Origin: Aplectana chamaeleonis
Taxonomy: Eukaryota > Nematoda > Chromadorea > Rhabditida > Cosmocercidae
Reading direction: 5' to 3'
Length of the DNA: 64,000 bases
NCBI GenBank assembly: GCA_029168955.1
Contig: JAPDOI010000020.1
Span: 2,844,001 to 2,908,000, forward strand
Shown here piece by piece: positions 38,191 to 63,090 of the stretch (its first letter is position 1; each line of letters opens with the position of its first letter). The position numbers were made by a program, and so were the translations under genes. The notes beneath the pieces were generated by a model. That model searched no databases. It was not told where the DNA came from and worked only from the letters and a program-made list of their open reading frames with translations.

Positions 38191-38194
38191 TTAA

Positions 38195-38643
38195 AGGCAG
38201 CATACACGCTCGTAAACGTGATTGGAATGACTACGAAAATAGAATGGTACGGCTGAGATTACAACGCCTACGCATTTTGAAGCCTCAAAAACGGTCCACA
38301 ATGCCGTTACAGGAGTAGCAAATTCGGCCCCACCCGTATTTTCACGCCCCCTGTATTTGCCCTTTTCCTGCAACGCAAAGTTTCTGGTTCCTCTTCACCA
38401 TCGGTAGTGTTGGTGGATTGTCTAACAAAAGAGGCACACACGTCACTGACGGCGAAGATGCGTGGGAGGGAGGAAACGCAGATACAGGGGGCGTGAAAAT
38501 ACGGGCGGGGCCAAACTTGCTACTCCTGTAACGGCATTGTGGGTCGTTTTTGACGCTTCGAAATGCGTAGGCGTTGTAATCTGGGCCATACCATTCTATT
38601 TCTGGATTTATCCTAATCACGTTTACGAGCATGTATGCTGTCT
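38195..38643. mobile_element. C-family TTAA foldback MITE, copy 1
   Basis: 449 bp with long inverted arms starting AGGCAGCATACACGCTCGTA. TTAA lies at 38191-38194 and TTGA at 38644-38647. Second copy at 50987-51433. Confidence 0.9.
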
Positions 38644-38647
38644 TTGA

Positions 38648-39134
38648 AGGCAGCGTTCACCATAAAAAATGTGTTTCAGTTCCCACTAGGAATGCGTAGT
38701 GGAGGGGCACACTATAACGTTGACGTCGAAAGAACGCATGAAAACGAGCCAGGAAAAGCTACAAAAGAGTCCGAAGTTGCCACTTCGAGCGCAAGGCAAA
38801 CCCCAAAAGCGCAACACACGCCCACCGACATGAACAAATGAATGCTCGAGATCGAGAAATGAGCGATGATTTCCAATCATTAGCCCCGTTCTTCCCTTCA
38901 TTCTCAACTTCTCTCTTTATTCAGGTCACCTCGCACACATCGGCTGCAAAAGACGGAAGCTACAAGCCTCGGACAACTCGTCCACCATGTTTCCTCAGTT
39001 CAATTTTTAAGGGACCATAACTCCGTTCCTATCAGGTCTTGTACGATTTAAGAGGCACCATTGGAATCAGCATGAGGCCGTTTATAGAGATAGGCGGGAA
39101 AACAGAAAAACGATTTTCATCGTGAACACTGCCT
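38648..39134 (-). mobile_element. M1-family TTAA MITE, copy a
   Basis: 487 bp, ends AGGCAGCGTTCACC and GAACACTGCCT. Shares its left TTGA with the C element and its right TTAA (39135-39138) with copy b. Confidence 0.9.
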
Positions 39135-39138
39135 TTAA

Positions 39139-39625
39139 AGGCAGTGTTCGCGATAAACTTCATCCTCGAATTTTCCATGACAAACGCTTCTCGTGGCTCT
39201 CAGAAGCAGAAAAGCGTCGAAATAACGGGACGAAAAGCTACCCAGGAGCCGCAAAACGGCTTCGAAAAGTGGGCGAACCCCGCCGCTGTGGGCAAGTCCC
39301 GCCCCTCTCCGCCCCTCGACGTGAACAAAGGAACACTCGAAATCGTGAGTTGAGCGATGGTTTCGGATCAAAAGCCCCGTTCTTGCCCTCATTCTCAACT
39401 TCTCTCTTTATTCAGGTCAGCTCGCATACATCGGCTGCAAAAGACGGAAGTTACAAATCTCGGACAACTCGTCCACCATGTTTCCTTAACTCAATTTTTA
39501 AGGGACCATAACTTCGTTCCCAGAAGGTCTTGTACGATTTAAGAGACACCATTGGAATCAGCATGAGGCCGTTTATAGAGATAGGCGGGAAAACAGAAAA
39601 ACGATTTTTATCGTGAACACTGCCT
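39139..39625 (-). mobile_element. M1-family TTAA MITE, copy b
   Basis: 487 bp, ends AGGCAGTGTTCGCGATAAA and GAACACTGCCT; TTAA at both sides. Its left half differs from copy a but matches copy c. Confidence 0.9.
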
Positions 39626-39629
39626 TTAA

Positions 39630-40037
39630 GTGCAATGATTGTAACTGCTAGCTTACAAGGCTTCTAAAGAGCATGCCGAAACACTGTTTGTAATAAACAC
39701 CGTTTGTTGTAAACTACGAGCAGCTAGCGGCTACAGAATGATTAGTTTAGAAAAAACCACGGAAAACTGAAAGGGATGAAATGTTCTCAAATGTTGAAGA
39801 GAGCCGGGCAACGTTTAAATTAATATTGCGTAGCTCCAGCGCTTGCAGCGCGGCATCGAAATTAGGCATCTTTCGTAGCTCTCACCGCAAGCGCGGCACG
39901 ATTCGAAATGACCATCTTGACCGAAAGGAGTCCCCATGTTAGTACTCAACCTGTACCTGCACACGAAATTTATTTAAAAACGTTTGCAATATTGAATGTT
40001 GTCCTCTTTTTTCCATGTTTCACACTGAAGAACCTTC
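39630..40037. other. Spacer, nothing recognised
   Basis: AT-rich sequence with no gene or repeat identified. Confidence 0.4.
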
Positions 40038-40298
40038 ATGGAACCGCTGAGCCTCCCACTCTACATAGGTAAGAGTCATCTCAAATACTTCCAGAAGAGC
40101 AGAGTACTGCCGGTGACAATTCTGTGCTCTTCAGCGAATAAGAGTCATATAACACTGCGTGAGCTGATGGACCGGCATTTTTCGGCTCGCTCTCAGAATT
40201 TGATAAAATTTCCTACCTGGAAAAGATTCAGCAAGAAAACGAACAGTGTGGCTCTCTGTGACAAACATTTCATCATTTCTAAAGTGTTCACAAGTTAA
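40038..40298 (+). CDS. Small hypothetical protein, optionally spliced
   Basis: An ATG opens MEPLSLPLYI and reaches a strong donor at 40069 (GTAAGAG); an acceptor CTCTTCAG ends at 40134. The 66 nt between them is in frame and without stops, so both an 86-residue unspliced and a 64-residue spliced product are possible. The downstream part reads LRELMDRHFSARSQNLI and ends SKVFTS. No family recognised. Confidence 0.33.
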   Translation: MEPLSLPLYIGKSHLKYFQKSRVLPVTILCSSANKSHITLRELMDRHFSARSQNLIKFPTWKRFSKKTNSVALCDKHFIISKVFTS

Positions 40299-40598
40299 AT
40301 GACAATCTGGCAAACCGACCCTCGAAGAAACGTACACCTGCAATGAATGTCAACCTACCTGAACGAGACGAAGTTACTAATAGTGACTACTAGCAGAGGA
40401 AGACTTACCGCAGTTACCTAGAGACAAGTCATAAGTACCTCTCTGGTTGCTAATACATTTCGGCAGGGAAAACGTCATTAGTCCCCATCGTTACATCCGA
40501 ACAAACCGTTTGCTGCATTTCGCAATACGCGTTTCTGCATGAGATTTCGGTGGAAAACTCCAATTATGACTGTGTTACATACAGTTGGCTTCATTTAG
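40299..40598. other. Spacer with old duplicate
   Basis: 40302-40470 is a diverged match to 44560-44705 in the same orientation (for example CTCTGGTTGCTAATACAT against TTCTGGTTGCTAGCACAT). It is probably a repeat. Confidence 0.4.
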
Positions 40599-40844
40599 AG
40601 CCCTTCCTGCCGTCCTGGCTTCATTGCATTGCGCTGCAGATACGCACACAACGCGTGTGAGCACTTATATCCAGAAGATCCTTTACAGGGCACGTGCTAC
40701 AAAGTTTGTGACAGAAGCATATGTCAGCCCCTCGCCCCCCACCTCTTCTATGGAAAGAACGTACAGTACAAGGCAAGGGAGAATGGCGATTGTGCGCCAG
40801 AGTGTTTGCGCAATTATCGACGCCTAAGTTGTGATTTCCCCTGA
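40599..40844 (+). CDS. Candidate terminal exon of a Cys-rich secreted protein
   Basis: After the acceptor TTGGCTTCATTTAG an 82-codon frame is open to a TGA. It encodes nine cysteines in regular spacing: SPSCRPGF, RCRYAHNACEHLYPED, GTCYKVCDRSICQP, GDCAPECLRNYRRLSC. This pattern suggests a disulfide-rich secreted module (EGF- or TIL-like in style), but the family is not recognised and the upstream exon with a signal peptide was not found. One poly(A)-like AT-rich tract follows. Confidence 0.42.
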   Translation, partial: SPSCRPGFIALRCRYAHNACEHLYPEDPLQGTCYKVCDRSICQPLAPHLFYGKNVQYKARENGDCAPECLRNYRRLSCDFP

Positions 40845-41023
40845 ATACTGGAGAAAAAACAACCTCAAGTTTCCATTTACCATGGATATACGAAGGAATT
40901 ACAGCAGAAATAGATTTTTATTGTTATTTCCATTTTTTTTGAATTTTTTTGTTTTTTTTTCTTGGTATCCCTGAGTGATTTGGCAGCTACTTAGCGATGT
41001 TATGACTCAGATTAGCGCCCTAA

Positions 41024-41620
41024 TTAGGTATTGCCTACCTCGACCGTATAGAAAGAAGTTCGCTTACGACCGGAATACTTTTCTACAAACGTTATATCGA
41101 TGACGTTTTTATCATAGGGTCTTCACGGACAGATTTAGACGCAACTCTCCTTAATTTGAATTCTTAAGTTGAGAGTATTAGCTTCACAGTAGGGGAACCA
41201 AACGGTGACGCATTCGTTCCATTTCTGAACACGAAAGTCAGAGTTCTAGGGGGAACCTCTGAGCTTACGTGGTATAGAAAGCCAGCATCTGAGAACATCA
41301 CACTTCACTCGAGGAGCTGCCATCCCCTCTACATGAAGGCCAACGTTGTTCGTAACTTGACCGTGACAAAGGATAGAGCGTGCACCTTCAGATCGGATGC
41401 TATGGATTCCATAGTGGACGTATTCTAAGCTATAATGGTTACAATCACGCACGCACACACTCATGGAGGCCTTGCAGTACTCCGGACGGTGTTGCAATTA
41501 TAATGCCATACGTCAACGAGCAAGTGGCCCGTAGAGTTAACAGTGTCATGAATTCCATTCATGATACTTTTAGCCATCTAACCTCCGCGGTGTTCAAGGG
41601 TGTATAGCGCCCACGCCCCT
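41024..41620 (+). pseudogene. Penelope-like reverse transcriptase fragment
   Basis: In one frame the sequence reads LGIAYLDRIERSSL, FYKRYIDDVFIIGSS (catalytic YIDD), SFTVGEPNGDAFVPFLNTK, LTWYRKPASENITLHSRS and CHPLYMKANVVRNL. This order is that of the RT palm and thumb of Penelope-like elements. TAA stops at 41021 and 41168 and a stop near 41427 break it; the following MPYVNEQVARRVNS lies in another frame. A pseudogene. Confidence 0.85.
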
Positions 41621-41622
41621 AG

Positions 41623-42708
41623 CAAGGGAACCACAATAAGTCATAGTGACCATTCCAAATGAAATGTACTTTTCTAGAACCATTTTCGGAAGAAAAATCC
41701 GAATATGCCCATCGCAGCTGCCTAGACCCACTCTGAAAAAAATTATAGGTATTTTTCTTCGATTTTCGCACTTATTGTACCCTCCGAAACGCGCATTATT
41801 TCTACGAAAATCCGGAAACTGACCTCATAATCGTGTTCAGCGCCCAAAACTACCCCACTAAGCAAAGTTAGGTTGAAGGAACATTTTCCAAACTTTGCGC
41901 AGACTAACAGCGTTTTGGACTTGTACGGATTTTCGGTTGGGCGTTTATTTATACCAATTAGATGGCACTCGAAGCGTTCTAGAAAAATAATCCAGATTTG
42001 ACTAAAAATCAGCTCTGGGGGGTTATTTAGGGTGCTGATCACGAATCTGAGGTTCATATAACAATTTTCCAAAGTTTTCGACTGTATTCGTTCACAGATT
42101 CCCATCGGGGGAGAATTTGATGGCAAATCGCGGCTTTCGTCGATTTCCGGAGTGCTACTATAGATTATGCTCAAATTATTTCTCTGGAGGTTATTTGGAG
42201 CGCTGAACACGAATCTGACGTCGGTTTATCGATTTTTGATAGCTTAGGGTAGATTACGGTGGGTATACGGTAGTTTGGTCAAAGTCTCAGATTTGTCTCA
42301 AAGTTTCTATGTGGGGGTTATTTGGGGCGCTGAATACGAATTCAATGTCCATTTGTCGATTATCAGAATATTGAGGTAGGTTTTGCATCCTAAATGGCAT
42401 GTTACCTACCGTAACCTACAGTAAACCTTAAAATTGGGCAAGGAAACCCAAGATTCGTGTTCGGCACCCCAGATTACCCCTACATACATGTTTTTAGCAA
42501 AATCCGGAGAAAAATTTAAAAACACCCTAAAAATTCCATGGGGGGGGGTACCCTTACCTTGCCGCGAAGCTTCAAAAAACGCACATAACTTGTCTCAGAG
42601 TGGGTCTAGGCAGCTGCGATAGGCATATTCGGACTTTTCGTCCGAAAATGATTCTAGAAAAGTACATTTCATTTGGAATGGTCACTATGACTTATTGTGG
42701 TTCCCTTG
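41623..42708. mobile_element. TIR element, 1.09 kb, inserted in the Penelope-like element
   Basis: Terminal repeats of about 115 bp begin CAAGGGAACCACAATAAGTC and pair with 42594-42708. The interior has several degenerate direct and inverted repeats around GGTTATTTGGGGCGCTGAA. No conserved ORF. Confidence 0.88.
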
Positions 42709-43064
42709 TAAGAGGTATAAAAGCAGACGGTTAGTATCGCCGGGGGGGGGGGGGGCGAGGCGATACGCATACGAGTAATCAAAGTAAGGCAACTCGCCGC
42801 CAACGGTCGGACCCGCCGACTACACGTGTTAGGTACAAACTACAAGAGAGAACACATGACAATTACGTGATAGCTACGAGATACACAAATAGGACAGTTC
42901 ACTAACAAAGGCTTAACAGTTGAGAATATTTGTAGTATGTATGTAACGGTTAGATAATTAAATGTGTTAGATAAAGGCCAAGTCCAGAGTGGAAGGAACA
43001 AGAGTAAAATTGATGAACCACCAAATCCCAACTGGAAAGTGACGCAGTCCAGTTAAACAGCGTC
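42709..43064. other. Sequence between foldback and GIY-YIG domain
   Basis: Contains a G run at 42741-42754; not clearly part of the Penelope-like ORF. May be a further insertion. Confidence 0.35.
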
Positions 43065-43530
43065 GTGAAGAACCCATTGCTGCCTGTACGGCTCATATTC
43101 CGACCACCACCTAATTTGAAAAGCATACTCACCTTTTCAAGGCCTTATGAAGATAAATGTGGAAGACGGGAGTGTGGTTACTGTGATAATAAAAAGATAT
43201 GCCAACTAACAAGGACTGTTTACATGATAGAGTGTCAAGGCTGCGGCCAGAAATATGTTGGAGAAACTATGAGGCCCCTGTACAAACGGCTTGATGAACA
43301 TCACAGGGAATTACAATACCCAGCCTCTTACCCTACCAACAGTCTTTCAAGGCACAAAACGCTAGAACACGCGCCAGTAGCTCCCCCTAGATGGCTTATT
43401 ACGGTATTGCACCGCCCAGTGGACAACACAGTCGAAGGAAAATTCTAGAGGCCATTGAAATGAAACGGTTATCACCAGTAATAAACAACCGCGATGAATT
43501 CCGCGACGTTCTTCGAATCATTGCGTGATT
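43065..43530 (+). pseudogene. Penelope-like GIY-YIG endonuclease domain
   Basis: The frame begins NPLLPVRLIFRPPPNLKSIL, a Penelope-like connector. A zinc-ribbon-like segment follows (CGRRECGYCDNKKIC), then the nuclease motifs VYMIEC and KYVGET with MRPLYKRLDEHHREL. The frame closes near 43446; the family tail (ILEAIEMKRLSPVINNRDEF) continues in another frame to 43530. GIY-YIG is the family-specific endonuclease that starts integration. Broken by at least one frameshift. Confidence 0.85.
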
Positions 43531-43720
43531 AACCAACCGCTCTTTGGGCTACTGTAGGTATCCGTCATGATAGGAATACCACTGCGCCTTTGGCTATTTA
43601 AGAGCGCCAAAGCGGTATGATGCCGTTTATTAGTGGTTGCGGCTCTCAGTCACAACAGCGACAAACCAGGCCAGTCTGCCGTAGCAACGATTCCAGTGCT
43701 GCAATAATCTATGCGTTTCA

Positions 43721-43755
43721 GGTCTGAAGAAGGTGCTATGCACCGAAAGCTAACC
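43721..43755 (+). ncRNA. Hammerhead ribozyme-like motif after the Penelope-like element
   Basis: GGT, then CTGAAGA (core CUGANGA) at 43724-43730, a stem GGTGC-TAT-GCACC at 43732-43744, GAAA at 43745-43748, a 2 bp GC, TA and ACC, which pairs with the leading GGT. Penelope-like elements are known to carry minimal hammerheads. One extra A at 43731 and the very short third stem leave activity uncertain; it could act as a dimer. Confidence 0.45.
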
Positions 43756-43912
43756 AGAGAGCAGAAGTTCAAGAAGGAAGTTTTGCGAGTTTTTTGGAAG
43801 ACACTTTTTCTCGACGAACTTTCGCGAGCTTTTGCAGATTTCAAGCCTCTTTTGGATAGTAAACATTTCAAGCAGCAATGGGGCTCCGCGATAGCACTAT
43901 TCTGCCATGCTT

Positions 43913-44030
43913 TTATCAGGTAAATTTGTTAGGTAAATTTGTATTTATTTGTTCCTCTAAATGTCGATGATTTTGGACTGCTCGACATGAGGCTTCTTTT
44001 GCTGCGCTGTGCAGGTGTGCACGAACTAGC
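43913..44030. mobile_element. R1 MITE internal fragment
   Basis: Matches the centre of R1 (TAAATTTGxATTTATTT, CTCTxAATGTCGATGATTTT, TGCACGTGTGC-like). No ends present. Confidence 0.65.
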
Positions 44031-44743
44031 ATCTTTAGGTCTACCTCGTTGCAGTGATGGGTGAAAGCCATGGCATTCAGGACAAATCGTGGCGGGACCA
44101 GCATGGGAGCAACTGCAGTGGCCGTCGTAGAAACAGCTGTCACGTGCCGTGTCGCAGAGGGTTCACATACTGCAAATGTGTCTATGCCTGTCGTTGCCAG
44201 TGTCACTGTCGCTGTGCAGCGCACTGCGACAGCGACAGATTTGAAGGGCGGGAGCTCACCGACAGGCCGTTGCTGTCGCTGTGCAGAATGGCGCGACCGC
44301 GTGTCGCAAAAGTATACCATTGGTCTAAGTTGGACAGTGCGGGTGTGCTCATTTAGTATATCACCGATAATCAGAGGTGACCAGCGTGCAGTCTTGTACA
44401 CAATGTTCCGGAAAACAAGTGGTTGAATGCCAAAATCGTAGAGCAGCGCAAGCAATTCATCTATACAACCCACCTGAGAGAGATACACAAGAAGAACAAG
44501 TAGTGGGATGCTACGTAGGAAACAGTTCATGATCTCTGAACTTTCAACTATATGTATGACATTCAGGCCAAACTGACCCTGGTGCAGATGCTCAACCAAC
44601 CTGAACCGGAGTAGACTGCAGGAATGACTACTACCTGCAGAGAAGGGATGTTCCAGGTAACGTGGTCGCAAGTAATAGGAGACTTTCTGGTTGCTAGCAC
44701 ATTATGCTTTTCGAGACTAAAGAAAGCCATCAACCCCTCGTAG

Positions 44744-45138
44744 TTACGTGGGCATTAGTGTATTGAGTTTTTCATACGTGTCACTGACAAAGGTGAGCAG
44801 AAACCGCAATGCATGAGGCTCATTCTTGGCTTCATCGTAGATAATCCAGCAAAAGCATACATTCAAATGTTCAGAATGCGACACATTTTGAGCGCGCCCA
44901 GGAGGATTGGGTGCATCGTTCGACTCTAAAATGTTGCTTCTATATTCAGCACCGGTGAGCGTCTGGGTGTAGCAAATTTTGATATCGAGACATGTGAGAC
45001 ATTGACTTTTTCTACAGAAACAATCATTTGAAACCACGACAAGGCCAACTATGCTCGAAGATTCTCTGAAAATCAAGCTTCGAACGACAAAGTTCATACA
45101 ATATTTAAGCGACACTTTTTCTCCTAGGGACCCGAAAG
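44744..45138 (-). CDS. Candidate terminal exon, unrecognised
   Basis: After the acceptor ATCTTTATATCTTAG on the minus strand, a frame of 131 codons is open to TAA. It reads FGSLGEKVSLKYCMNF, VGLVVVSNDCFCRKSQC, TLTGAEYRSNILESN and VSDTYEKLNTLMPT. It has eight cysteines and ordinary amino-acid use. Family unknown; no upstream exon before the MITE at 45279. Could be part of a host gene or chance. Confidence 0.35.
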
Positions 45139-45278
45139 CTAAGATATAAAGATAGGGCAAAACTCTATTTGTACATTAAGACTAGCTGTTTGACCAGACA
45201 TCAATCCTCTACGAAGATTGAATTATATTGTGGTCTGGTTGCCCAACTTTCAAGATTGTCATTCAAGTGCGGCTTTAG

Positions 45279-45755
45279 AGGCACAGTCCAACCTCAGAAT
45301 CGTTTTCCTGGGTTTGTGCCTGACTTGAAAACGGTCCTTCGCTGACTCCAACGATGTCCTTGGCATCGTACAAGACCCCCTAGGAACGGAGTTATGGCCC
45401 CTCAAAAATTGAGCTACGGAAGCATAGTGGATGAGTTGTCCGTGGAGTGTAACTTCCGTCATTTGCAACCGATGCATGCGAGCCGACCTGAATGGATAGA
45501 GAGGCTGAGAGTGAAGGGAAGAACGGGGCTATTGATCGGAAATCGTCGCTCATCTCGCCACTGTTGAGCTCGAAAGATCGTAAAAGGGGCGTGCCAAAGT
45601 GGCTTCCGGATGTGGGAGCCCCAGGGTGGCTTCCTCCCATATCTCGCTTATTCGGAGGAAATGAGATCTCACACTTGGCAGGTGCTATATGTGGTGGGTC
45701 TACTTCACAATTATGTGGAAATCACAGATTTCACCCCTGAGCTTGGACTGTGCCT
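45279..45755 (+). mobile_element. M2-family TTAA MITE, copy h
   Basis: 477 bp, ends AGGCACAGTCCAACCTCAG and TTGGACTGTGCCT; TTAG at 45275-45278 and TTAA at 45756-45759. The interior shares GTACAAGACC, GGAGTTATGG and ATGGTGGACGAGTTGTCCG-like blocks with M1. Confidence 0.88.
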
Positions 45756-45759
45756 TTAA

Positions 45760-46263
45760 GGCTTTCAATGAAGTGTGGACCTAGCCAAAACCGACTTCGT
45801 GTTCCACAGATTCGTGACGCAGTCGAGATGAAGACACGATGTGCATGGCATAGCCGGGGAGTGCTACTTGCTCTGGTTGTATCAGTTTCCATCAGAAGGC
45901 TGCACCAAAGTGTCCTATGAGCTAAATGCGATTGCCGTGACGGTATACATAGTTATGCTGTATGAATTGCTGCGTTTGGCAAGGCAGGGTGTACTACTGG
46001 AAAGAGTAGGGGGCTCAAACTCTTGAAAAGGTCCTCCCTCGCGACAGAGGCCCAGAATCTGTTCGTTCTTGTTCCCCAACTCGTTCATCAATACTTTGCT
46101 TAGGAATACACATGAGATGAAAACTCTCCCAATGCGGGTTTTGGGCCTCTGTCATAGTGAGAAGGCAGTCTCCAGTGTTTCATGAGCCAGCCGTGGTTCG
46201 GCTTAATCAATACGACCGCCTAACTTCCATTAGGTATTCTTCATCATCAGACAGTTCCACAAA
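45760..46263. other. Spacer, nothing recognised
   Basis: Short ORF at 45841-46026 without motifs; GAGGCCCAGAATCTGTTCG-type inverted pair near 46050-46150. Confidence 0.35.
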
Positions 46264-46795: not shown

Positions 46796-46828
46796 TTCAA
46801 AAGGTTCCCTTTCTGACTTCAATTTCGC

Positions 46829-48185: not shown

Positions 48186-48189
48186 TTGA

Positions 48190-48676
48190 AGGCACTGTTC
48201 GCGATAAACTTCATCCTCGAATTTTTTGTGACAAACGCTTCTCGTGGCTCTCAGAAGCAGAACAGCGTCGAAAAAACGGGACGAAAAGCTACCCAGGAGC
48301 CGCAAAACGGCTCAAAAAAGTGGGCAAACCCCTCCATTGTGGGGAAGCCCCGCCTCTTCCCGCCCCTCGACGTGAACAAAGATACACTTGAAATCGTGAG
48401 TTGAGCGATGGTTTCCGATCAAAAGCCCCGTTCTTCCCTTCATTCTTACCTTCTGTCCTTACTCTTTTCAGCTCGCATACACCGGCTGCAAAAGATGGAA
48501 GTCACAAGCCTCGGACAACTCGTCCACCATTTCCCTAGCTCAATTTTCTAGGTACCATAACTCCATTCCCAGAAGGTCTTGTACGATCCCAGAAGCATCA
48601 TTGGAATCAGAATGGGACCGGTTTCAAGATAGGCAAAGAAAAAACAGAAAAGCGATTTTTATCGCGAACAGCGCCT
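48190..48676 (-). mobile_element. M1-family TTAA MITE, copy c
   Basis: 487 bp; TTGA at 48186-48189 and TTAA at 48677-48680. Same left half as copy b. Confidence 0.9.
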
Positions 48677-48719: not shown

Positions 48720-49197
48720 AGGCAAATCGTTTTTCTGTTTTTCCGCCTATCTTGAAAACGGCCCATTCTGATTCCTGATTCCAAAGATGTCTCTGAAGTA
48801 GTACAAGACCTTCTGGGAACGGAGCTATGGTCCCTCAAAAATTGAGCTAAGGAAACATGGTGGACGAGTTTTCCGAGGCTTGCAACTTCTGTCTTTTGCA
48901 GCCGATGTATGCGAGCTGACCTGAGTAAAGAGAGAAGTTGAGAATGAAGGGAAGAATTTGGCTAATTATTGTAAATCATCGCCTATCTCACGATCTCGAG
49001 CATTCACTTGTTCATGTCGGTGGGCGGGAAATGCGCTTTTAGGGTTTGCCTTGCGCTCGGAATGGCAACTTCGGGCTCTTTTGGAGCTTTCCCTGGCTCG
49101 TTTTCATGCGTTCTTTCGACGTCAACGTTACAGTGTGCCCCTACAGTACCCATTCCTAGTAGAAAGTGAAACACATTTTTTATCGTGAACACTGCCT
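48720..49197 (+). mobile_element. M1-family TTAA MITE, copy d
   Basis: 478 bp between TTAA at 48716-48719 and 49198-49201. The left end has lost about 10 bases after AGGCA. Confidence 0.88.
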
Positions 49198-50986: not shown

Positions 50987-51433
50987 AGGCAGCATACACG
51001 CTCGTAAACGTGATTGAGATAACTACGGAAATAGAATGGTGTGGTCCAGATTACAACGCCTACGCATTTTGAAGTGTAAAAAACGACCCACAATGCCGCT
51101 ACATGAGTAACAAGTTGGCCCCGCCCTGTATTTTCACGCCCCCTGTGTTTGCCCTTTTCCTGCAACTCAAGGTTGCTGGGTCATATTCACCGTCGGTACT
51201 GTTGGTAGGTTGCCTAACAAGTGAACCACACACGTCACTGACGGCGAAGATGGCCCAGCAACCCTGAGTTGGAGGAAAAGGGCAAATACAGGGGGCGTGA
51301 AAATACAGGGCGGAGTCATCTCCTAACTCATGTAGCGGCATTGTGGGTCGTATTTGACACTTCAAAATGCGTAGGAGTTGTAATCTGGGCCATATCATTC
51401 TGTTTCCGTAGTTATCTCAATCACGTTTACGAG
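50987..51433. mobile_element. C-family TTAA foldback MITE, copy 2
   Basis: Starts AGGCAGCATACACGCTCGTA after TTAA at 50983-50986. The right terminus (about 12 bases and TTAA) is missing and runs directly into M1 copy e. Confidence 0.87.
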
Positions 51434-51914
51434 CAGTGTTCACGATGAACATCGTTTTTCTGTTTTCACGCTTATCTTGAAAACGGTCCCATGCTGACTA
51501 TAATGGTCTCTGGAATCGTACAAGACCTTCTGTGAACAAAGTTATGGTCTCTCAAAAATTGAGCTAGAGAAGCATGGTTGACGAGTTGTCCGAGGCTTGT
51601 AACTTCCGCCTTTTGCAACCGATCTATGGTAGCTGACCTGAGTAAAGAGTGGAGTTGAAAATAAAGAGAAGAACGGGGCTAATGATTGGAAATCATCGGT
51701 CATTTCTCGATCTCGAGCATTCATTTGTTCATGTGGGTGGGCGTGTGTTGCGCTTTTGGGGTTTGTCATGCGCTCAAAGTGGCAACTTCAGGATCTTTTG
51801 GGGCTCTTCCTGGTTCGTTCTCATGCGTTCTTTCGACGTCAACGTTACAGTGTGCTCCTACACTACCCATTCCTAGCAGAAACTGAAGCACATTTTTTAT
51901 CGTGAACACTGCTT
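51434..51914 (+). mobile_element. M1-family TTAA MITE, copy e
   Basis: Begins within the terminus (CAGTGTTCACGATG) fused to C copy 2; ends GAACACTGCTT then TTAA at 51915-51918. Confidence 0.87.
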
Positions 51915-52073: not shown

Positions 52074-52559
52074 AGGCAGTGTTCATGATAACAATCGTTT
52101 CTCTGCTTTACCGCCTGTCTTGAAGACGGTCCCATGCTGATTCCAATGATGTTTTCGGAATCGTACAAGACCTTCTGGGAACGAGGTTATGGTCCCTCAA
52201 AAATTGAGCTATGGAAACATGGTGGACGAGTTGTCCGAGGCTTGTAACTTCCGTCCTTTGCAGCCGATCTATGCAAGCTGACCTGAGTAAAGAGAGAAGT
52301 TGGGAATACAGGGAATAACGGGGCTATTGATCGGAAACCATCGCCCATCTCACAATCTCGAGCATTCATTTGTTCACGTCGGCGGGCGTGGAAAGTGCAT
52401 CTGGGGTGTGACGAGCTGACGGGTTTCCAACTTTGGAGCCGTAGGGGACCGTTCCAAGCTCATTTTTCTTAGTTTTTTCAACGTTAGGGTCGCGATAGAC
52501 CCCGCAGCTGCCGATCTCCACCAAAAAATCAGACATGGTTTTTATCGTGGACACTGCCT
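52074..52559 (+). mobile_element. M1-family TTAA MITE, copy f
   Basis: 486 bp; TTAA at 52070-52073 and 52560-52563. Right third differs from other copies (a third end type). Confidence 0.9.
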
Positions 52560-52633
52560 TTAAATAATTCACTTTAAAAACCATTTCACTGCGAAAACTA
52601 ACAATTTTTTTCCGAAATCTGTGGAAACCTTAA

Positions 52634-53120
52634 AGGCAGTGGTCGCGATAAAACATACCTGCCTTCTTTTTCTTTTTAAACCCTTTTCTGGATTCAGAGT
52701 AGTAAGAGCTATCATAAAAAATTGCGAAAAAACCACTGTTTTGGGCCAAACTTTGAGCCTAAACTTTCTAGTCAATTGATGGTGGACGAGCGCACTCCAC
52801 AGCATCGGCATTGATGATCTCTAGTATCAAGAGCATCAGCTGACTTGAAATGGGAATTCTATCAATGAGCAATATCCTTCGGACCTACCTGCTGAAATAT
52901 TCCTGTCTTCGTTGAGCCAAACCTAGAATGGAGTGCTTGTTTCTATGTTTCAACTGTTTTCATAAGCTTAATTTGCATTCATTGCCAGCTGTGAGCGTCA
53001 ATGATTTTTGACGGCTCAGCATGAGACTGCGATTTTCGGGCGGAGTTGTGCACGTGGGCACTATTTAACAACTTAGGATCCTTATAATTCAATTTTTTAG
53101 CTCGTTTCTTGCCGCGTAAC
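52634..53120 (-). mobile_element. R1-family TTAA MITE, 3'-incomplete
   Basis: Begins AGGCAGTGGTCGCGAT after TTAA at 52630-52633; follows the reverse of the 27730 copy to about 53120, where the last 60 bases are missing. Confidence 0.82.
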
Positions 53121-53140
53121 CTTCGCGACCTCTGCTTTTA

Positions 53141-53581: not shown

Positions 53582-53585
53582 TTAG

Positions 53586-54073
53586 AGGCAGTGTTCACGA
53601 TAAAAATCGTTTTTTCTGTTTTCTCGCCTATCTTGAAAACGGCCCCAGGCTGATTCCAATGATGTCTCTGAAATCGTACAAGACCTTCTGGGAACGGAGT
53701 TATGGTCCCTCAAAAATTGAGCCAAGGAAACATGGTGGACGAGTTGTCCGAGACTTCTAACTTACGTCTTTTGCAGCCGATGTACGCGAGCTGAACTGAG
53801 TAAGGAGAGAAGTTGAGAATGAAGTGAAGAACGGGGCTAATGATTGGAAATCATCGCTCATCTCACGATCTCGAGCATTCATTCATTCACGTTGGTGGGA
53901 GTGTGTTGCGCTTTTGGGGTTTGCCTTGCGCTCGGAGTGGCAACTTCGGGCTCTTCTGGAGCTTTTCCTGGCTCGTTTTCATGCGTTCTTTCGACGTCAA
54001 CGTTACAGTGTGCCCCTCCGCTACCCATTCCTAGTGGAAACTGAAACACATTTTTTATCGTGAACACTGCCTT
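53586..54073 (+). mobile_element. M1-family TTAA MITE, copy g
   Basis: About 488 bp; TTAG at 53582-53585 and again at 54074-54077. Confidence 0.88.
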
Positions 54074-54240: not shown

Positions 54241-54712
54241 AGACACAGTCCAATCTCAGGATCGATTTCTCGTTTCTTCGCCTATCTTGGAGAAAATTGC
54301 ATGCTGATCACAATGGTGTCTCCAGAATCGCTCAGAACTCAGTACGAGCGGAGTTACAGCTCCTCAAAAATTTCGATTTTGAACGGTTGGAAGTTTGCGG
54401 ACGAGTTGTCTCGAGCCCGTATTTTCTCGCTATTTGCAGCCATCGTTCTGTAGCAGGCCGCAATATGAAGCTACACCAGAAACAAAAGAAAGAACTCAGA
54501 TTCTGGACAAACTCATTCGCGCGTCTCTTCCCTATTGAGGTCGGACACCTGGCATTGGGCGTTACCCATTTTTCTTTCAAGGGGGCGTGGACGACATTTC
54601 CTAGCTTTTTCTCGCTTATTTGAGCGAACTGAGATTTCGCGCTTGGCAGGGTTGCTATAGGCGGCGACTGGACCATAGTATCAAAAATTACCTCTGAGGT
54701 CTGACTGTGCCT
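54241..54712 (+). mobile_element. M2-family TTAA MITE, copy i
   Basis: 472 bp, ends AGACACAGTCCAATCTCAGG and GACTGTGCCT; TTAA at 54237-54240 and 54713-54716. A family-Q MITE end (GTGGGCGGACAGTCTCATTC) lies just before it. Confidence 0.87.
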
Positions 54713-55287: not shown

Positions 55288-57548
55288 AAAAGCGCGCGCC
55301 GAACAAAGCAAAACGCACGCTAGCTGGAGCATTCAGAAAGCTGCGCTAGTGCCCAAAAGGCGGCGAAATTGAAGCGCTTCAACAGGTTGGCACCTCAATC
55401 AGTGCAGCTTTCCGGGCTCTGCACCAACGAATACGTGCGCCACTGCTTTACATGCACCATGCGCAATGCGCGCATGGAATTATTTGAGGCTCGCGCACAA
55501 CGCATCGCTCAGCGCATACGACGGCGCAGTGCTATACTGTCAATTAACCGCCTGGAATGAGACATTGGACCGCACAAATTCAAGTGGGCCAAAAAATCAG
55601 TGCACCCATATGCATGCTGTGTCGCGCAACTAGCTCTGCGTGTAATAGTGCTACGCAAGCCTTTCCCACGAGTTTTCGATGGTTTATGCCAACTTAAGAC
55701 TGCGGTTGGCAAGACTCAGCTACTAGCAGCCACATGCAGTTGGGATTATGCGCGCGCCGATAAATGCGAGACGCGCACACATGCAAGCGCGCTCTATGGG
55801 GCGGCATCCCATTGTAACTCAGAAGACAACACTAATGTCGACATGCCTATAGAACGTTACTTTTTAGCGTAACTATGCGCGCAGTAGCTAGAATGTTTTA
55901 GCGGGCCATCGAGGGCACGCACCACTACTGCGCCCGCCATTCGCGCGCAATATCAAAGGTGTATGATTCAACATAGCTGGCATACGCCATTTTAGAAACA
56001 TGCGCCAACTGAAGCGAAACGTGCACAAACTGCTCTAGTGCACGTCCCCGGTAGTGCGTGGTTTTGACACACTGAAGCGGAGACGGTATTGTACCCGAAC
56101 TGGGGGGGGGAGGGGCCACGTCATTGTCCTGTATGTGCGTTTTGTAGAAGTCGGCGCGCACAAAGCGCGCGCCTCGGAAGAAAAATCAAGCTACCGAACT
56201 AAGCGGTACGCTATCAAGTTATGCGCAGAATAAGGACTCTAAATTTTTGCGCAGACGAGCGCCCGTGTAAAAATGATGCGTGCGCGCTATTCAACGCTGT
56301 TAATCTGCAAAAATCAGCGCGCGTTATTTTTCACACATTTTTGTGAAACCACGCATTGCTTGGTGTACTAACCAATACATTTACGCACAAGCGTACACAG
56401 AAATACGCGAAAAACTTGTGCTGCTCTTGATGCAACTGAAATTCTCCCCTATAATCAGAGCGGCTTTACGCGTTCCTTTGCTCGCAGAAACCAGACAGTG
56501 GTATCGCGCGATCACAGATGCCCCAACGCGCCATGTGCAAGTTCCAGTTCACGCGCTATTGCGCTGTGTACGCGTTCTGTAGCAGGTTCGTTCTGGCCCT
56601 CGCATCGATGAGTTTTCTGAGCGTTTTGCGATAATAGGCGCGAGCGCGATTTCAACAGTGTCTACTCCAATCTAAGACCTTAGTGGCTACGGAAGTCAGA
56701 GTACATATATGTACGTTTTAAAACGTAGCATAGCAGTCAGCAGTAAATATAAAAATCATAAATTAGGAGCATTATATGCCTAATTATGCTTATTTCGCTC
56801 TAGACGGAATTCACCTCAATATACTTCCCCTAATAGCAAGAAGAAAGACGTAGATGATGAAAGTCGCGGCGTATGCAGATACATAATTATTAGAATATTA
56901 TGATTATTATGTTGTATAGTACAAATGAAATAGAGGCGAGCACTTTGGAACGACATCAAATGGAATGAGTTTAGACCGTGTCGCGGAGACGACACATCGC
57001 GACGTCTAGCGAATAATCGTCGACTGTATCAGGTGGTTCATGAACATTGCGACTGCTTGAGGATTTGTCGCGCGATCGCACTGCATGAAGCGAACGGCTT
57101 GCTCCTGAAAGGTGGAGGTCAAATATTCTGTTTGTGATAAAGCTCCACAAAATCTTTGGACAAGGCCGCAATCGAAGGATTACGGTTTGAGTAGACTCAA
57201 GACGCCAAGCGAGAATCGCTATAGAGCAAGAGCGGCTCTACTTTTATGGGCTCCTGAAGAGTCCCATCAGCTGGGTTCAGGTCGCGCATCGCACTAGGCG
57301 GCTAACTCGTCGACGGCTCCTATTTTTTCGTGTTGGGGACCTCAACGTGTGGTCTTCTGCGAGAAAGTGCTAGCGTGAATCGGCGCGCTTGACGAAAACG
57401 GAACAACTGCTAAGCGCGTGACCGACGCTGATCGGTAGTTGAGGCGCCCCCAGGTTTACAGTGACGGGGGCCTGTAGTCCAATCACAATTATCATCCTGC
57501 TGCGAGAATGTACGCAAGTGCGGACTGGAATTTCGCTCCGATATCCAC
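55288..57548. other. GC-rich unexplained region
   Basis: Rich in GCGC, with several plus-strand open stretches (55369-55560, 55600-55872, 56343-56582) lacking known motifs. AAAGCGCGCGCC occurs at 55289 and 56162. A G run is at 56102-56110. No gene can be supported. Confidence 0.4.
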
Positions 57549-57805
57549 AGTATTCTTCACTTCCGCACTGCCGTTCAGTCCGCAAAGTGCGCTTGATTGC
57601 GAAATCGTGCTGCGGCGCGGTTGCGAGTATCCTCAGACAGGGATGTGGGATCACCCGGGCGGGGGGATCACCCGGGCACCAAAGGCCAAAAGCGCCCGGG
57701 TGATCCCATATCCTTGTCTGAGGATGTTCGCAACCGCGCCGCAGCAAGATTTCGCAATCAGGGTGCACTTTGCGGACTGAATGGCAGTGCGGAGGTGAAC
57801 TGTAC
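57549..57805. mobile_element. Foldback MITE, family P, copy 2
   Basis: Same arms as 13009-13266 (TTCAGTCCGCAAAGTGC, CTGCGGCGCGGTTGCGA, GGATCACCCGGGCG). The two copies differ at many bases. The 220-codon minus-strand ORF across it is an artefact. Confidence 0.85.
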
Positions 57806-59940
57806 TTCTCGTCAGCGCGATCACCGTTGAGCTTCTTTATACAGCCACATGGCGTCAATACTTCCTGCATAGCGGCACAGCAACGCGGCTGCCGCATAGC
57901 AATTGCGTCATCATGCATTTCCAATCGTCGCCATTCAAGCGCGACGACCGGAAGTATGATCCCAGCCACAATGTGGCCGCCGTGTTGGGCTCCGTCCATA
58001 CGTGGCGAGAGCGTGCGATTACGCAAAATCAATGGTCATCGTAGGCACACGATTCGCTAGCCGCTCAAAGGCGCTCCTTCTCGCGCGCCCTCTCTCGCTC
58101 GCTCCCGCACGCTTACGCCAGCACCACGGAGAAAGCAGCAAGTTTCAAGCTTACTGCTCCATCACTAAAGCAGTTGGCACTGAACCTGTAGCAAAACTAC
58201 TGCCCTTGTTTTTCATAATCCCTCCACGAAAGCCGAATACCATGGAAATCATCAGCCGTCGCGCCGACTCGAGCGATTGATCCCCCGTTCAAACGTTTTC
58301 AATCAAATCAACAAGAGGTGGGGAGTGTTTGCCTGTCTTAATTTGCGGGCAGCGTTGAGGAGCGTCGAGAGGCGCACAACAGCGGGAGCGCCCGCTTTCG
58401 CAACGTTTGGACGCTGCCTTATGCGCCTCACTGCGAGGACAAGAGATCAAACGCTAGCGCTAAGGACTAAATCACACTTCTTATCGTCGCAATCGTATCG
58501 TGTCGATGTTCCCGACGCCATGATGAAGTGGCCGTCGCGACGTCATGCCTCTGTGCGAGGACTAGCGGTCGTGCGGAACTCCATAATTGCACTAAAAAGC
58601 TAGCGACTGCGATAGGTATGACAGATCGGCGTGCCAGCAGCGACCGCGTTGTGCGCATCAGTCGCAATCCTCGCGGCGGCGACAAGTCGCAGCAATGATA
58701 AGTATGATCTTGGTCTGAAGGGCAAGCACGCCGCTGATGAGTCTGAAACCAATCAGCGACACTCTCACGCGTCGTGGCTGCCTCGTAATTGCCCTACGCG
58801 GTACCGCACTTGCCCCTGCGAACAAAGTCTCGTCGCTGAGAAGCGCGGCGGCAGCGCAAAACCCATCCTCCTCCGTAACATACTGCCGCGTCAGCCAGCG
58901 GCAAGACTTCGTTTGATTTTTGACGTTCTTAACGTTCTCGCTGCTGAGTGGTGAGGCGCACTGTACGTTCTACTAATCATAAAGCGTGGCAAGATCGATA
59001 CTGTGCAAAGAGCGGAGGTGCGTAACACGGGCCAAGTCTAACAGGGTGAATAATTCCACATTGTCTTGTGAAGCTCGTCACGCCGCAATGATGGAGAATT
59101 GAGGGCAATCACGAAGCCACGTATGTAGCCGCATTTAATAGAGTAATGAAGAGGCGCGACTCGCCCGATACAAACACGCGTGACTTTGAGGCCGGTATCC
59201 TATTTTCTGCAGACGCAATTCGTCGGTGATACCATCTTTAACGATGAGAAAGCGCGAGCGTTGCGCGCACGATAGGTGCTGTGATAAGGCCTTCTCAACG
59301 CCAAGTGATTAAGCCGGGTCACAGGCGAGAATCGCTACCGCGATAAGTGCGACACCTCAGCGTTCGAGTAGCGATGGCGTCGCAAGTAGCGGCTATCCCG
59401 TTTTCATCGCGATCGACGCGTCACGAACTTCGCTGAGCGTTGTTTGTACCTCCACAGCCTAGCGACGTAGCAGAGTGCAATCCCATAATACGACCGCGAA
59501 GCGTGATCAACATGGTAGAATCACACTTCGTCTCACCGTTCCGCGGTGGAAATACGAACGACGCCTTAGGGCCAAAATAAACTCGCACTGCTGAAGAGCG
59601 TGGTTGCAACACGCAATTGACTCTCTTTCAAAGCATGCTGTCGCGCCGTTCAGCGACAGGATTACTCGGGATCTCATGCATCTTCTAAACTTCTGTCCCT
59701 GAGCAGCGTGGCGCAACGCAATATTATTGACTATACTATTGGTCATGCGACGCGGCTCGCTCGCTATTGCAGGATTTCAATGTGCCGCTCCGCTCAGCGG
59801 TTTAAGCATAGAAGTCATCACAGTGGGCGCGCTCTGCTTTCCCGCCTCAAGTAGCACCACTGTTGGACAGCGGCGTGAAGTAAGTATAAACCAAAATTAT
59901 AAGGATCGCACTCTTCTCGCTCTCCCTCTCCTTCTCCATT
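57806..59940. other. Unexplained CG-rich region
   Basis: Many CGCG and GCGA words, short ORFs on both strands, no family motifs and no clear repeat. A minus-strand frame at 58467-58685 after GTTTCAG is open but unrecognised. Confidence 0.35.
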
Positions 59941-61209
59941 TCAACCAACCTGGCAGTCAAGCAGTCGCCGGTGAAGGATTTCAGTTTGCTCCCGTAAGCT
60001 GCGCGTCTCTGCTTCCAATGTGCGTAACGCAGCTTCAGCGGAAGAGATCTGCGCTTGCGCTCTGACCGCTTCTGTCTGAAATTGTAACTTTTCGAGATGA
60101 GTCATACAGCAGGTATTAGTCCAGAAGATCTACCTGCAGGGTGTTCCCTCTGCTCTCCAGATATCGGCACTTATTGTCGGCCATCGTCAACTTCGTCTTG
60201 TAGACGGCACAGTCGTAGCAGCCGTTTGGACTCGCTGATGAGTGCGTTTCCGAGGGCGACACATGCGACGGGGAGATCACAAAGCGTGAGTCGACATTCT
60301 GAATCAGGCCGTCTACCTGATAGGTCCACGATAATTATCAAGTCAAAGAAGACCTTACCAAATGATGGAAGGCGCTTGGCGCATCACTCTTCTTGAACAG
60401 ATTCACCGGCGAGTGGGCAGAGCTGGTATGCGCCGGGGAGAGGCCATCAGAACTAGTCGCGGAGCCATTCTCACACGGGCTACAAAATTCAAAGCATACA
60501 GAGGGCATTCGAGGATAGTGTGAAGGACTAGTCTCACCTTTCTGCCCGCTTTATCACAAGGGATTTGCCCTCATCCGACTCGCTGCTGGACATATTCAAC
60601 TGAAATCAGAGTACGTCTGAACATCTGAACCGACTACGTTGTCCTGCCAAATGTACCTTCTCGTCGTCAGTGTGCTGGTCGTTGTCGACGTTAACTTCGC
60701 AGTCATCATCCTCCCTACAATCCTTCTTTAGAAGGTCCACCATAGGCTTCGTAGCTGCAATGGGGATCAGTTACTTCACACAAGTCAAACTCAAATCTTC
60801 CTCAGACCCACTCACTAGGAATAGGCTTAGGCAGGTTATTGAGCCAGGCAGCAGCCAATCCGAATCCAGGCTGGGTGATCAGGGAGTTCAGCATCAAGCG
60901 ATCGCGGAGTCTGCTCATGTCCTCGGGTGAAGACGTCAATGAGGGCGGCGGTGGCGCGGAGAAGAACGTCAGTCCAGTATTTGGGTTGATAACTAAAGAG
61001 GTATACGGGTTGATCCTGCGGCCAATACACAGTGAGCTAGAGCAGTCATTCTACATACGATAAGTGTAAGACTAACCTCCTGGTGGCTGCATTTGTGGCA
61101 AAGTGTTATTGTTGATGGAATGCATTGTTGGATAACCAGAATCGATGCCGTCGGGAGCCAGACCCTTTCCAATCACAGGAACAGTCACAGATTTGCCTTC
61201 TTCTCTAGC
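59941..61209 (-). CDS. Multi-exon coiled-coil protein, 3' part
   Basis: Seven exons: 61209-61077, 61015-60816, 60754-60657, 60599-60538, 60479-60359, 60298-60134 and 60075-59950 or to the TGA at 59941. Introns are 57-61 nt with GT and mostly TTCAG/TGCAG borders, and phases agree from exon 2 to exon 7. Exon 2 is rich in Pro and hydrophobic residues (INPYTSLVINPNTGLTFF, LITQPGFGLAAAWLNNLPK). Exons 3-5 are acidic and Ser-rich (DDDCEVNVDND, SSSESDEGKS). Exons 6-7 have CYDCAVYKTKLTMADNKC, then heptads (ISSAEAALRTLEAETRSL). This looks like a nuclear or scaffold protein with a dimerising coiled coil; the family was not recognised. Exon 1 to exon 2 is out of phase by one base. Confidence 0.85.
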
Positions 61210-61280
61210 CTGAACAATTTGAATGAGGTAGGTATGAGTGTCATCAGTACCATGAGTGTCGGCGGCTCATTGAACTGATC

Positions 61281-62712
61281 AAGAAGAGAAAAAATTGAAG
61301 AAGAGGAGAGATAGCTCAGAGAGCCCAAGAGGAGGAGTAATAGGAAGAGAAAGACGAAGAAAAGTGCATGTCAATCGAGTGCACAGAGTGGGAGGCATGT
61401 AGTAGCAGTTCAGCTTGTACATGCGAAGCGCGCGACAGAGAGTCGCCGCATTCGTGCTCCGTGACCAGTAGACCGACCTACTCCTATAAGCCTCACAGTC
61501 TCTGCATTTGATCAACAAGCCAACAAAAAAAGAAGGAATGAGAGGACAGATGGAGGAGGAGCGAGAGAAAAAGAGCGAGCAAAATTCAGGTAAAAGGGAG
61601 TTGGGACAGAATAAAGAAGGGAAGATGGAGGGATACGAGAAACAAGAAGAATTGAAAAAAAACGAGATAGAGCGGGCTGACGTAGAGAAGGAGACGACGT
61701 AGTTAAGTGAAAGGAAGAAGAGAAAGAGGAAGAAGAAAAGGGAATGGCAGAGGAAGAGTAAAAAGAGGACGAAAAAATAAGATGATGAGCTACTGGGAAG
61801 AGGAGGGCATGAAGGGGAAGATTCTCAGAACTCAAAGAAAAATAAAGCCGAGGAGGGCCAGGAAGAGGAACAAGCACAAGGACAGGCATCAAAAAATGGA
61901 TCATAGTCAAGTGCGGGAACGAGCAGAAGGGAGAGAGGAGAAGGAAGTGAAGAAAGAAGAAAAAGCGGAGGAAGACTGAAGGAAAAGAGTTCGAGACAAG
62001 GAAGTGAATGAAAAAAAGCGGAAGAAAAGATGAAAAGGTAGGTGATTCAAAGGTAAAGAGAAAGGTATGTGGAAGGGCAAGAGAGCAAAGAAGATAATCG
62101 GAATGGAAAAAAAGAAAAAGAAAGAGCAGGAAAACGAAATGAATCACAAAGAGAAGAAGATAAGTAAAAGGTTGAACAAAGGCGCAGACAACATGAAGAA
62201 ATTGAGATAAAGAGGGGAAAGGAAAACAAGGAGAAGGAGAAAGAGGAAAACAAAGAGAACGCAAAAGAACAAAAACAAAATCAGAAACAGGGGCAAAGAC
62301 AGAAAATGAAAAAAGAGAGGAGTAGAAAAAAAAAGGTAAGGAGGGAGAACAGGAAGAGACCTAGGGAAAAGGAAGGAAGAGGTAGAAGAGAAGATAGGGA
62401 GAAGCGATCGGATGGGCAACGCAAAAGTTTGTGCTAGAGAAGGACGATGACGAAGGTAAACAGGAAGAATGAGCAAGACGAGAAGAAAGAGGAAGTGCAC
62501 AGGACAAGTAAAACCAAAGAATCGAGAGGGAGAAAGGCGAGGAGAGCGGAAGGCAGAGAAGGCTCACGGGAATTAGAAGAATGAAGATAGGATAAAGGAG
62601 GTAGACGGGTTAGAGGAAAGGACGACTTAAAGGTACATGAATATGAAACGGAGGAAGTGGAGGAGGGGAGAGGGAAAGAAAATGAGTAAGAAAAGATGAT
62701 AGAGAAGAAGGT
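61281..62712 (+). repeat. Long polypurine tract
   Basis: From 61527 to 62712 the plus strand is about 85-90% A and G by eye, with a smaller purine block at 61281-61365. It is irregular (GAAGAAAAAGAG and so on), not a simple repeat. On the gene strand it is a polypyrimidine tract upstream of exon 1 of the coiled-coil gene. Long ORFs over it are artefacts. Confidence 0.9.
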
Positions 62713-62716
62713 TTAA

Positions 62717-63090
62717 AGGCACAGTCCAACCTCAGAATCGTTTTTCTGCCTATCTTGAAAACGGTCTCATTCTGATTCCAATGATGTCTCTGAAATCGTC
62801 TAAGACCCCCTAGGAACGAAGCTATGACCCCTCAAAAATTGTGCTACGAAAGCATGGTGGACGAGTTGTCCGAGGCTCGTAACTTCCGTCATTTACACCC
62901 GATGTACGCGAACCGACCTGAATAAAGAGAGAGGCTGAGGATGAAGGGAAGAACAGGCTATTGTTCGGAAATCATCGCTCATCTCGACACTGTTGAGCTC
63001 AAAAAATCGTAAAAGGGGCGTGCCAAAGTGGCTTCCGGGTGTGAGCGCCCCAGGGTGGCTTCCCCCTATATCTCGCCTATTCTGAGGAAT
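62717..63090 (+). mobile_element. M2-family TTAA MITE, copy j, truncated
   Basis: Starts AGGCACAGTCCAACCTCAG after TTAA at 62713-62716. Follows copy h, then stops before a hairpin at 63093; about 100 bases are missing. Confidence 0.85.

What the first reader, a model, noticed from the sequence alone, without database searches (positions are those of the whole stretch)
38191..63090. A TTAA-targeting superfamily sharing AGGCA termini
At least 15 copies in four families (M1 about 487 bp, M2 about 475, R1 548, C 449) all start AGGCA, end TGCCT and sit in TTAA, TTAG, TTGA or TCAA. Interiors are unrelated between some families. A shared terminus and target implies one transposase; piggyBac uses TTAA but has other ends. 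C. elegans has palindromic repeats named for TTAA, which may be related.
Basis: partly seen in the sequence, partly recalled or inferred. Interest (0 to 1): 0.75.

Follow-up and report, generated by a model that had tools for sequence, protein, structure and literature searches.

The report
Kolobok-like miniature transposons at TTAA sites
This stretch of a roundworm genome is crowded with short, non-coding jumping DNA pieces that insert at TTAA, and longer relatives elsewhere in the same genome carry what looks like the enzyme that moves them, a Kolobok-type transposase rather than piggyBac.

Summary
TTAAAGGCA occurs 16 times in the window against 0.75 expected. TTAAAGGCAGTG occurs 83,998 times in the 1.04-Gb genome against 169 for the reversed control. 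Perfect elements (TTAA on both sides, AGGCAGTG ends, 470-500 bp) number 10,696 against 0 in the control. One paralogous empty site shows a single TTAA/TTGA. The families are less unrelated than claimed: several share a core of 260-316 bp.

A transposase was found: four loci match PF20700. One copy (C16) sits in a 16.9-kb element with 20/20 identical AGGCA... ends and TTGA on both sides. Another (C1363) ends in TTAA|AGGCA on the one side found. A DDE-type protein with a DxxH signature, a 4-bp TTAA-type duplication and RR...YY termini fit the Kolobok superfamily.

Best reading: Kolobok-superfamily MITEs in a strongylid nematode, a new member of a known kind. Open: no transposase copy with the AGGCAGTG ends of the M and R1 families was found, two further transposase loci showed no AGGCA end, no THAP domain was seen, and piggyBac genes also exist, their ends unread.

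The parts
38195..38643 (.).
   Evidence: self-complementary 76%
38648..39134 (-). M1 element, 487 bp, TTGA left, TTAA right
39139..39625 (-). M2 element, 487 bp, TTAA both sides; shares the TTAA at 39135-39138 with its neighbour
43914..44042 (-). R1 fragment (model 120-255)
   Evidence: E 2.9e-24
45279..45755 (+). AGGCACAGTCC-ended element, 477 bp, TTAG left, TTAA right; shares about 260 bp with the M core
48190..48676 (-). M2 element, 487 bp, TTGA left, TTAA right; right end AGGCG
48720..49197 (+). M1 element with a short deletion just inside the left end, TTAA both sides
50987..51440 (.). 449-bp-type palindrome, TTAA left; right end lost where it is fused to the next element
51431..51914 (+). 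M1 element with degenerate ends
52074..52559 (+). M3 element, 486 bp, TTAA both sides
52634..53124 (-). R1-like element, one end TTAA-AGGCAGTGG, other end lost (model 78-549)
   Evidence: E 4e-95
53586..54072 (+). M1 element, 487 bp, TTAG left, TTTA right
54241..54712 (+). Distant relative of the M core, 472 bp, left end AGACA, TTAA both sides
   Evidence: (E 1.2e-23)
62717..63086 (+). AGGCACAGTCC-ended element, TTAA left, right end lost
27730..28277 (+).
19790..22031 (-). R1 element split by about 1.7 kb that includes a LINE reverse-transcriptase fragment (20679-21668)

Best explanation
[quoted passage not shown] A DDE-type transposase matching PF20700, encoded by longer elements with the same kind of ends, recognises terminal repeats of the form AGGCAnnGTnCACGnT, moves the element into TTAA or near-TTAA sites and leaves a 4-base duplication. 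Shown: the ends, the 4-bp sites, one paralogous empty site, the copy numbers, and one transposase-bearing element with identical 20-bp AGGCA ends and TTGA on both sides. Inferred: cut-and-paste chemistry, mobilisation of the AGGCAGTG families by this transposase lineage, and the host group.
For: TTAAAGGCAGTG 83,998 vs 169 in the control; 10,696 + 2,868 perfect-ended elements of 470-500 and 439-469 bp vs 0 and 0. Empty site with one TTAA/TTGA. PF20700 in 4 loci. C16: 16,919-bp element, ends identical at 20 of 20 bases (28 of 40), TTGA on both sides. C1363: homology with C16 downstream of the transposase stops at TTAA|AGGCATCG, flanks beyond differ. Twelve terminal sequences (chosen by me, several from related families) stay alike after AGGCA: mean pairwise identity 0.56 at positions 6-18 vs 0.25 in shuffles, maximum 0.317 of 2,000. 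Protein: DGxxDSR and TTDR in 17 of 17 aligned rows, DGWH in 14 of 17. TTAA duplication, RR...YY termini and C/DxxH are the Kolobok features given in PMC9587614; Xenopus T2-MITEs, presumed Kolobok MITEs, have TTAA and AGGRR ends (PMC6004289).
Against: No transposase copy with AGGCAGTG ends was found. C16 ends match M at 11 and R1 at 10 of 16, five of these being the shared AGGCA. Of five transposase loci whose flanks I read, one has both AGGCA ends, one the right end only, one a degenerate right end, and two (C965, C57) none in what was fetched. No THAP domain in 8 homologues scanned. Pfam calls PF20700 Mutator-like; that it covers Kolobok was my recall. PiggyBac genes are present and their ends were not read.
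Confidence: 0.83

Rival explanations
1. Two or more transposase lineages share or converged on AGGCA/TTAA: the palindromic 449-bp family belongs to the transposase found, the M and R1 families to another, unseen one.
For: C16 ends match P449 at 13 of 16 but M and R1 at 11 and 10; no autonomous AGGCAGTG element found.
Against: The end motif stays alike beyond AGGCA across twelve termini, and the M model matches the ends of other families over about 100-130 bp, e.g. E 1.1e-14 for X485 in L021. Both groups use TTAA-type sites.
Confidence: 0.1
2. The elements are piggyBac MITEs: piggyBac duplicates TTAA and piggyBac genes are in this genome.
For: PF13843 has 9 matches, several with long open frames up to 689 aa; TTAA duplication is shared.
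Against: The ends of the piggyBac copies could not be fetched.
Confidence: 0.04
3. The transposase is a Mutator (MuDR) element, as the Pfam name says.
For: Pfam name of PF20700; both superfamilies share the C/DxxH motif (PMC9587614).
Against: 4-bp TTGA/TTAA duplication; Mutator elements have 8-9 bp duplications (recalled). A weak P2X7-like (KolX-like) ORF lies downstream of the transposase in C965 and C57.
Confidence: 0.03

Closest known systems
Kolobok superfamily DNA transposons (PMC9587614; passages and Background read)
   Same: TTAA-type 4-bp duplication, RR...YY termini, DDE-type transposase with DxxH, possible KolX-like ORF beside one transposase subfamily
   Different: No THAP seen; host strongylid; PMC9587614 and PMC11118728 mention Kolobok in nematodes in general, Bursaphelenchus and Aphelenchoides, not this family
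Xenopus T2-MITE family (PMC6004289; passages read)
   Same: Very abundant short passengers with TTAA target and AGG... ends, presumed moved by Kolobok
   Different: Ends AGGRR there, AGGCA here; sequences not compared
KolobokP long terminal direct repeats (PMC9587614)
   Same: Lengths said to be constrained, about 450 or 660 bp; solo units with short inverted ends
   Different: KolobokP has a composite architecture and no strong target preference; here TTAA-type targets and no direct-repeat architecture seen
piggyBac
   Same: TTAA duplication
   Different: Ends and, in the element found, the transposase
C. elegans palindromic TTAA repeats (PALTTAA, PALTTTAAA names)
   Same: Named for TTAA-type targets (name recalled; papers holding the names listed)
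   Different: Not compared: no C. elegans sequence was at hand

Membership tests
Kolobok superfamily | 4-bp TTAA-specific target duplication | tested here: met
   15 of 22 window flanks TTAA, 7 one base off; empty site TTAA/TTGA; C16 transposase element TTGA on both sides, C1363 TTAA. TTGA rather than TTAA in C16 is a small departure
Kolobok superfamily | Termini 5'-RR ... YY-3' | tested here: met
   AG...CT; 63 of 72 ends AGGCA in 36 full-length copies; C16 and C1363 ends AGGCATCG
Kolobok superfamily | DDD/E transposase with C/DxxH between second D and E | tested here: met
   Sequence motifs only: DGxxDSR, TTDR 17 of 17 rows, DGWH 14 of 17; E block (CExKNALDR-like) in longer homologues only; catalysis and fold not tested (not accepted)
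Kolobok superfamily | Homology to reference Kolobok transposases (tree) | not testable with these tools
   No Repbase Kolobok proteins held; 27 relatives found are all strongylid
Kolobok superfamily | THAP domain (usual in Xenopus Kolobok, PMC6004289; not named as defining in the PMC9587614 passages read) | tested here: inconclusive
   None at E <= 0.1 in 8 homologues, some partial; genome search 0 but controls 0 too
Kolobok superfamily, Kol0 lineage | KolX protein related to the P2X7 C-terminal region | tested here: inconclusive
   ORF L038:5385-5849 best Pfam match P2RX7_C, E 0.0029, 18 bits, cut-off 23.5; not found in L034-L037
piggyBac superfamily | piggyBac-type termini (CCY..., recalled) | tested here: not met
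   AGGCA ends
piggyBac superfamily | PF13843 transposase between these ends | not tested
Mutator (MuDR) | 8-9 bp target duplication (recalled) | tested here: not met
   4 bp in C16 and at the empty site

The most novel reading that the evidence does not exclude
The superfamily evolves as a modular system of fixed length: a core of about 316 bp keeps one terminus while the other about 170 bp is replaced, so that M1, M2, M3 and the unlike F484 and X485 families all keep a total of 483-489 bp. Element length itself would then be under selection, perhaps through the geometry of the transposase complex or nucleosomes, much as KolobokP terminal direct repeats keep lengths of about 450 or 660 bp (PMC9587614). 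Old divergence from one ancestor is not excluded, and shorter or deleted copies of 333-477 bp also exist.
Probability: 0.25. Interest if true: 0.6.

Novelty: new member of a known kind. Interest (0 to 1): 0.42.

Why it matters
It ties one of the abundant repeats of a large strongylid genome to a transposase lineage and a target rule. Hits of three family models add up to 6,408 of the window's 64,000 bp. Relatives of the transposase are in other strongylids (Ancylostoma, Haemonchus, Oesophagostomum, Ostertagia, Cooperia, Necator, Trichostrongylus), so repeat annotation and genome-size comparisons in these worms could use a named family. The near-constant length of families that share little sequence is a testable puzzle.

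Tried and rejected
Rejected: piggyBac as first choice (ends; a PF20700 element has the ends). Chance. A left end of the C1363 copy at L036:3010: it is the outer end of a separate 226-bp element, 3010-3235. A palindromic repeat beside the transposase in L034 and L030 as its terminal repeat: an inserted palindrome with a further copy in L037. A TTAA pair with AATTTTTGGCGGG ends in L034: weak, no second TTAA-flanked copy of that end in what was held. Led nowhere: Rfam (0 matches); Pfam scan of 75 ORFs, no PF20700 (one search listed 140 ORFs, 91 outside the window, 75 given); PF05485 (0, controls 0); structure prediction. One search's cross-search of models against the element set printed nothing for M and F484, perhaps through my output filter; not used. 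One search failed on a wrong coordinate of mine and was repeated corrected. Not run for lack of an answer: length bins above 500 bp and the count of AGGCATCG termini.

The intended value, 0.83, stands here; the rival of two lineages was 0.06 and is now 0.10, because the rereading showed that two of five transposase loci gave no AGGCA end.
Full report
Setting. The window is bases 2,844,001-2,908,000 of contig C20 in an unnamed assembly of 1,036,593,504 bases and 2,087 contigs. A LINE reverse-transcriptase ORF of the window has its best named relatives in Ancylostoma ceylanicum, Haemonchus contortus and Cooperia oncophora (120 of 369 hits listed). The 27 relatives of the transposase described below are all in strongylids. 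The host is therefore inferred to be a strongylid (clade V) nematode.

Observation. TTAAAGGCA occurs 16 times in the window; 100 dinucleotide-preserving shuffles give a mean of 0.75 and at most 3. In the genome TTAAAGGCAGTG occurs 83,998 times on the two strands against 169 for the reversed pattern. Elements with perfect TTAA|AGGCAGTG and CACTGCCT|TTAA ends number 10,696 at 470-500 bp and 2,868 at 439-469 bp; the reversed controls give 0 (the pattern is its own reverse complement, so the count per strand is used once). Other length bins were not counted.

Families. Models were built from copies found in 22 loci of 10 kb or more (274 kb: the window, one neighbouring stretch, and 20 stretches of C1 chosen because they hold TTAAAGGCAGTG). 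They find 39 M, 36 F484 and 12 R1 copies or pieces, of which 10, 0 and 5 are in the window; 36 of the 87 are full length. M1, M2 and M3 (486-489 bp when undeleted) share about 316 bp and differ in about 170 bp. 45279 and 62717 share about 250-260 bp of that core; 54241 is a more distant relative. In global alignment the differing parts score z 3.1 (M1-M2), 5.1 (M2-M3) and 8.5 (M1-M3) against shuffles, so old common descent is not excluded. F484 and M share short interior stretches in like positions (15 of 18 bases, for example AAGGRAAGAACGGRGC), which hints at a remote common origin; for another such motif a shuffle test was not significant for F484 (27 of 200 shuffles as good). Some families are palindromes over most of their length: P449 at 76%, X485 at 68%, an element in L015 at 93%. 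Copies differ from the family majority by 4-14% (F484, 9 copies) and 4-7% (R1, 5 copies).

Target site. Among the 36 full-length copies TTAA is on both sides in 22, on one side in 12 and on neither in 2; 56 of 72 flanks are TTAA and 63 of 72 ends AGGCA. The C1 stretches were chosen around TTAAAGGCAGTG, so this is inflated. In the window, over 11 elements, 15 of 22 flanks are TTAA and the other 7 one base away. For L024:165-648 the flanks joined over one TTAA match uninterrupted copies of the same repeat at two places each in L010 and L009, which carry TTGA (three) or TTAA (one) at that spot. Other spanning hits were not used: several are self-matches of neighbouring elements, and L021:4559-5043 sits in an F484 copy where the alignment has a gap beside the site.

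Other TTAA-flanked inverted repeats. One search lists 224 pairs; 30 start AGGCA; of the others all but 10 lie in L020, mostly in one satellite array. Those 10 include AGGCG-, AGACA- and AAGCA-ended relatives, L010:7797-9255 (AGGGCAAAAATTTT, terminal repeats of about 204 bp) and a TATGTTCTAGGGGG palindrome in L023 with a relative at window 18368-18767.

Transposase. PF20700, which I recalled as a likely Kolobok-type domain (Pfam calls it Mutator-like), has 4 matches in the genome (16 of 16 candidates scored). A 230-aa piece of the C1640 copy has 132 matches (150 of 157 candidates scored); several loci give more than one. I read flanks of five loci. C16: a 16,919-bp element runs from TTGA|AGGCATCGTACGCGCTGAAA to the same 20 bases in inverse orientation followed by TTGA; its transposase region has internal stops and AGGCA-type elements lie nested in it. 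C1363: homology with C16 downstream of the transposase ends at AGGCATCGTACACACTGAAATCC next to TTAA, with unlike flanks beyond; its left end was not identified. C1640: the matching right end is degenerate. C965 and C57: 95.8% alike over 6.4 kb, with no AGGCA end of their own in what was fetched; a P449-type element is nested at the same place in both. The C16 end with up to 3 mismatches in 20 occurs 7 times in the sequence held (724 kb counting both strands, overlapping loci included): 4 at these transposase loci and 3 elsewhere. Seventeen aligned proteins or ORF pieces share DGxxDSR and TTDR; 14 of 17 have DGWH. The C965 and C57 loci have a cysteine-rich ORF downstream whose best Pfam match is the P2X7 intracellular domain (E 0.0029, below cut-off). 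PMC9587614 says that the Kol0 lineage of Kolobok encodes KolX, related to that P2X7 region.

Mechanism. Most likely a Kolobok-type transposase binds the terminal motif AGGCAnnGTnCACGnT, excises the element and integrates it at TTAA with a 4-bp duplication; the short families are passengers. Shown: ends, sites, one empty site, and a transposase-bearing element with such ends. Inferred: the chemistry, and that the AGGCAGTG families use this lineage. The C16 end is closest to P449 among the short families (13 of 16) and further from M and R1 (11 and 10), so family-specific transposases of the same lineage are plausible, for which diverged genomic copies are candidates.

Against and open. PiggyBac genes are present (9 matches, 12 of 12 candidates scored) and their ends were not read. 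THAP was not seen in 8 homologues.

Literature. PMC9587614: passages and the Background section. PMC6004289: passages. PMC11118728: passages; it reports Kolobok-T2 in Bursaphelenchus xylophilus and Kolobok-H in Aphelenchoides besseyi. PMC5395297: no occurrence in the main text. PMC6873666: passages on PALTTTAAA3 expression. The listings (Kolobok, or TTAA MITEs, with nematode terms) showed no title or abstract start describing AGGCA-ended TTAA elements in strongylids; one search listed 30 of 2,666 papers and none of those 30 held the word Kolobok. The other listed papers were not read, and Repbase and most subscription papers are not held, so this is weak evidence of novelty.

Verdict. A real, very abundant TTAA-targeting MITE superfamily, best filed as Kolobok-like: a new member of a known kind, with an unexplained near-constant length as its most interesting open point.

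Noticed in passing
G000 contigs C1245, C1258, C1260, C1273, C1275, C992 and C4: Nine piggyBac (PF13843) matches, several with long open frames up to 689 aa, most on contigs with near numbers.
   Followed up: no
L010:7797-9255: A 1,459-bp TTAA-flanked element with AGGGCAAAAATTTT ends and terminal repeats of about 204 bp, with an AGGCA-type element nested inside; perhaps another Kolobok-like family.
   Followed up: partly
window 18319-18816 and L023:4681-5076: A palindromic repeat family; the L023 copy has TATGTTCTAGGGGG ends flanked by TTAA.
   Followed up: partly
window 38195-39625: Three elements in a row separated by single shared TTGA and TTAA sites, as if TTAA duplications were re-used as targets.
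   Followed up: partly
window 51425-51445: A 449-bp-type palindrome and an M1 element fused with loss of both facing termini and the TTAA between them.
   Followed up: no
window 14990-15997: A mariner-type transposase ORF of 336 aa without stops (PF01359).
   Followed up: no
window 100-2436, minus strand: Long low-complexity open frames (VMLCY repeats) over a short tandem repeat.
   Followed up: no
L020:81-3700 and L020:5814-9721: A TTAA-rich satellite array (CGATTAACGATTT-like) and tandem units of about 1 kb with TTAA-flanked AGATGACT ends.
   Followed up: no
L038:1291-1755 and the matching place in C57: The same P449-type element nested in two 95.8% alike copies of a transposase-bearing stretch, so both derive from one copy that already held it.
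   Followed up: partly
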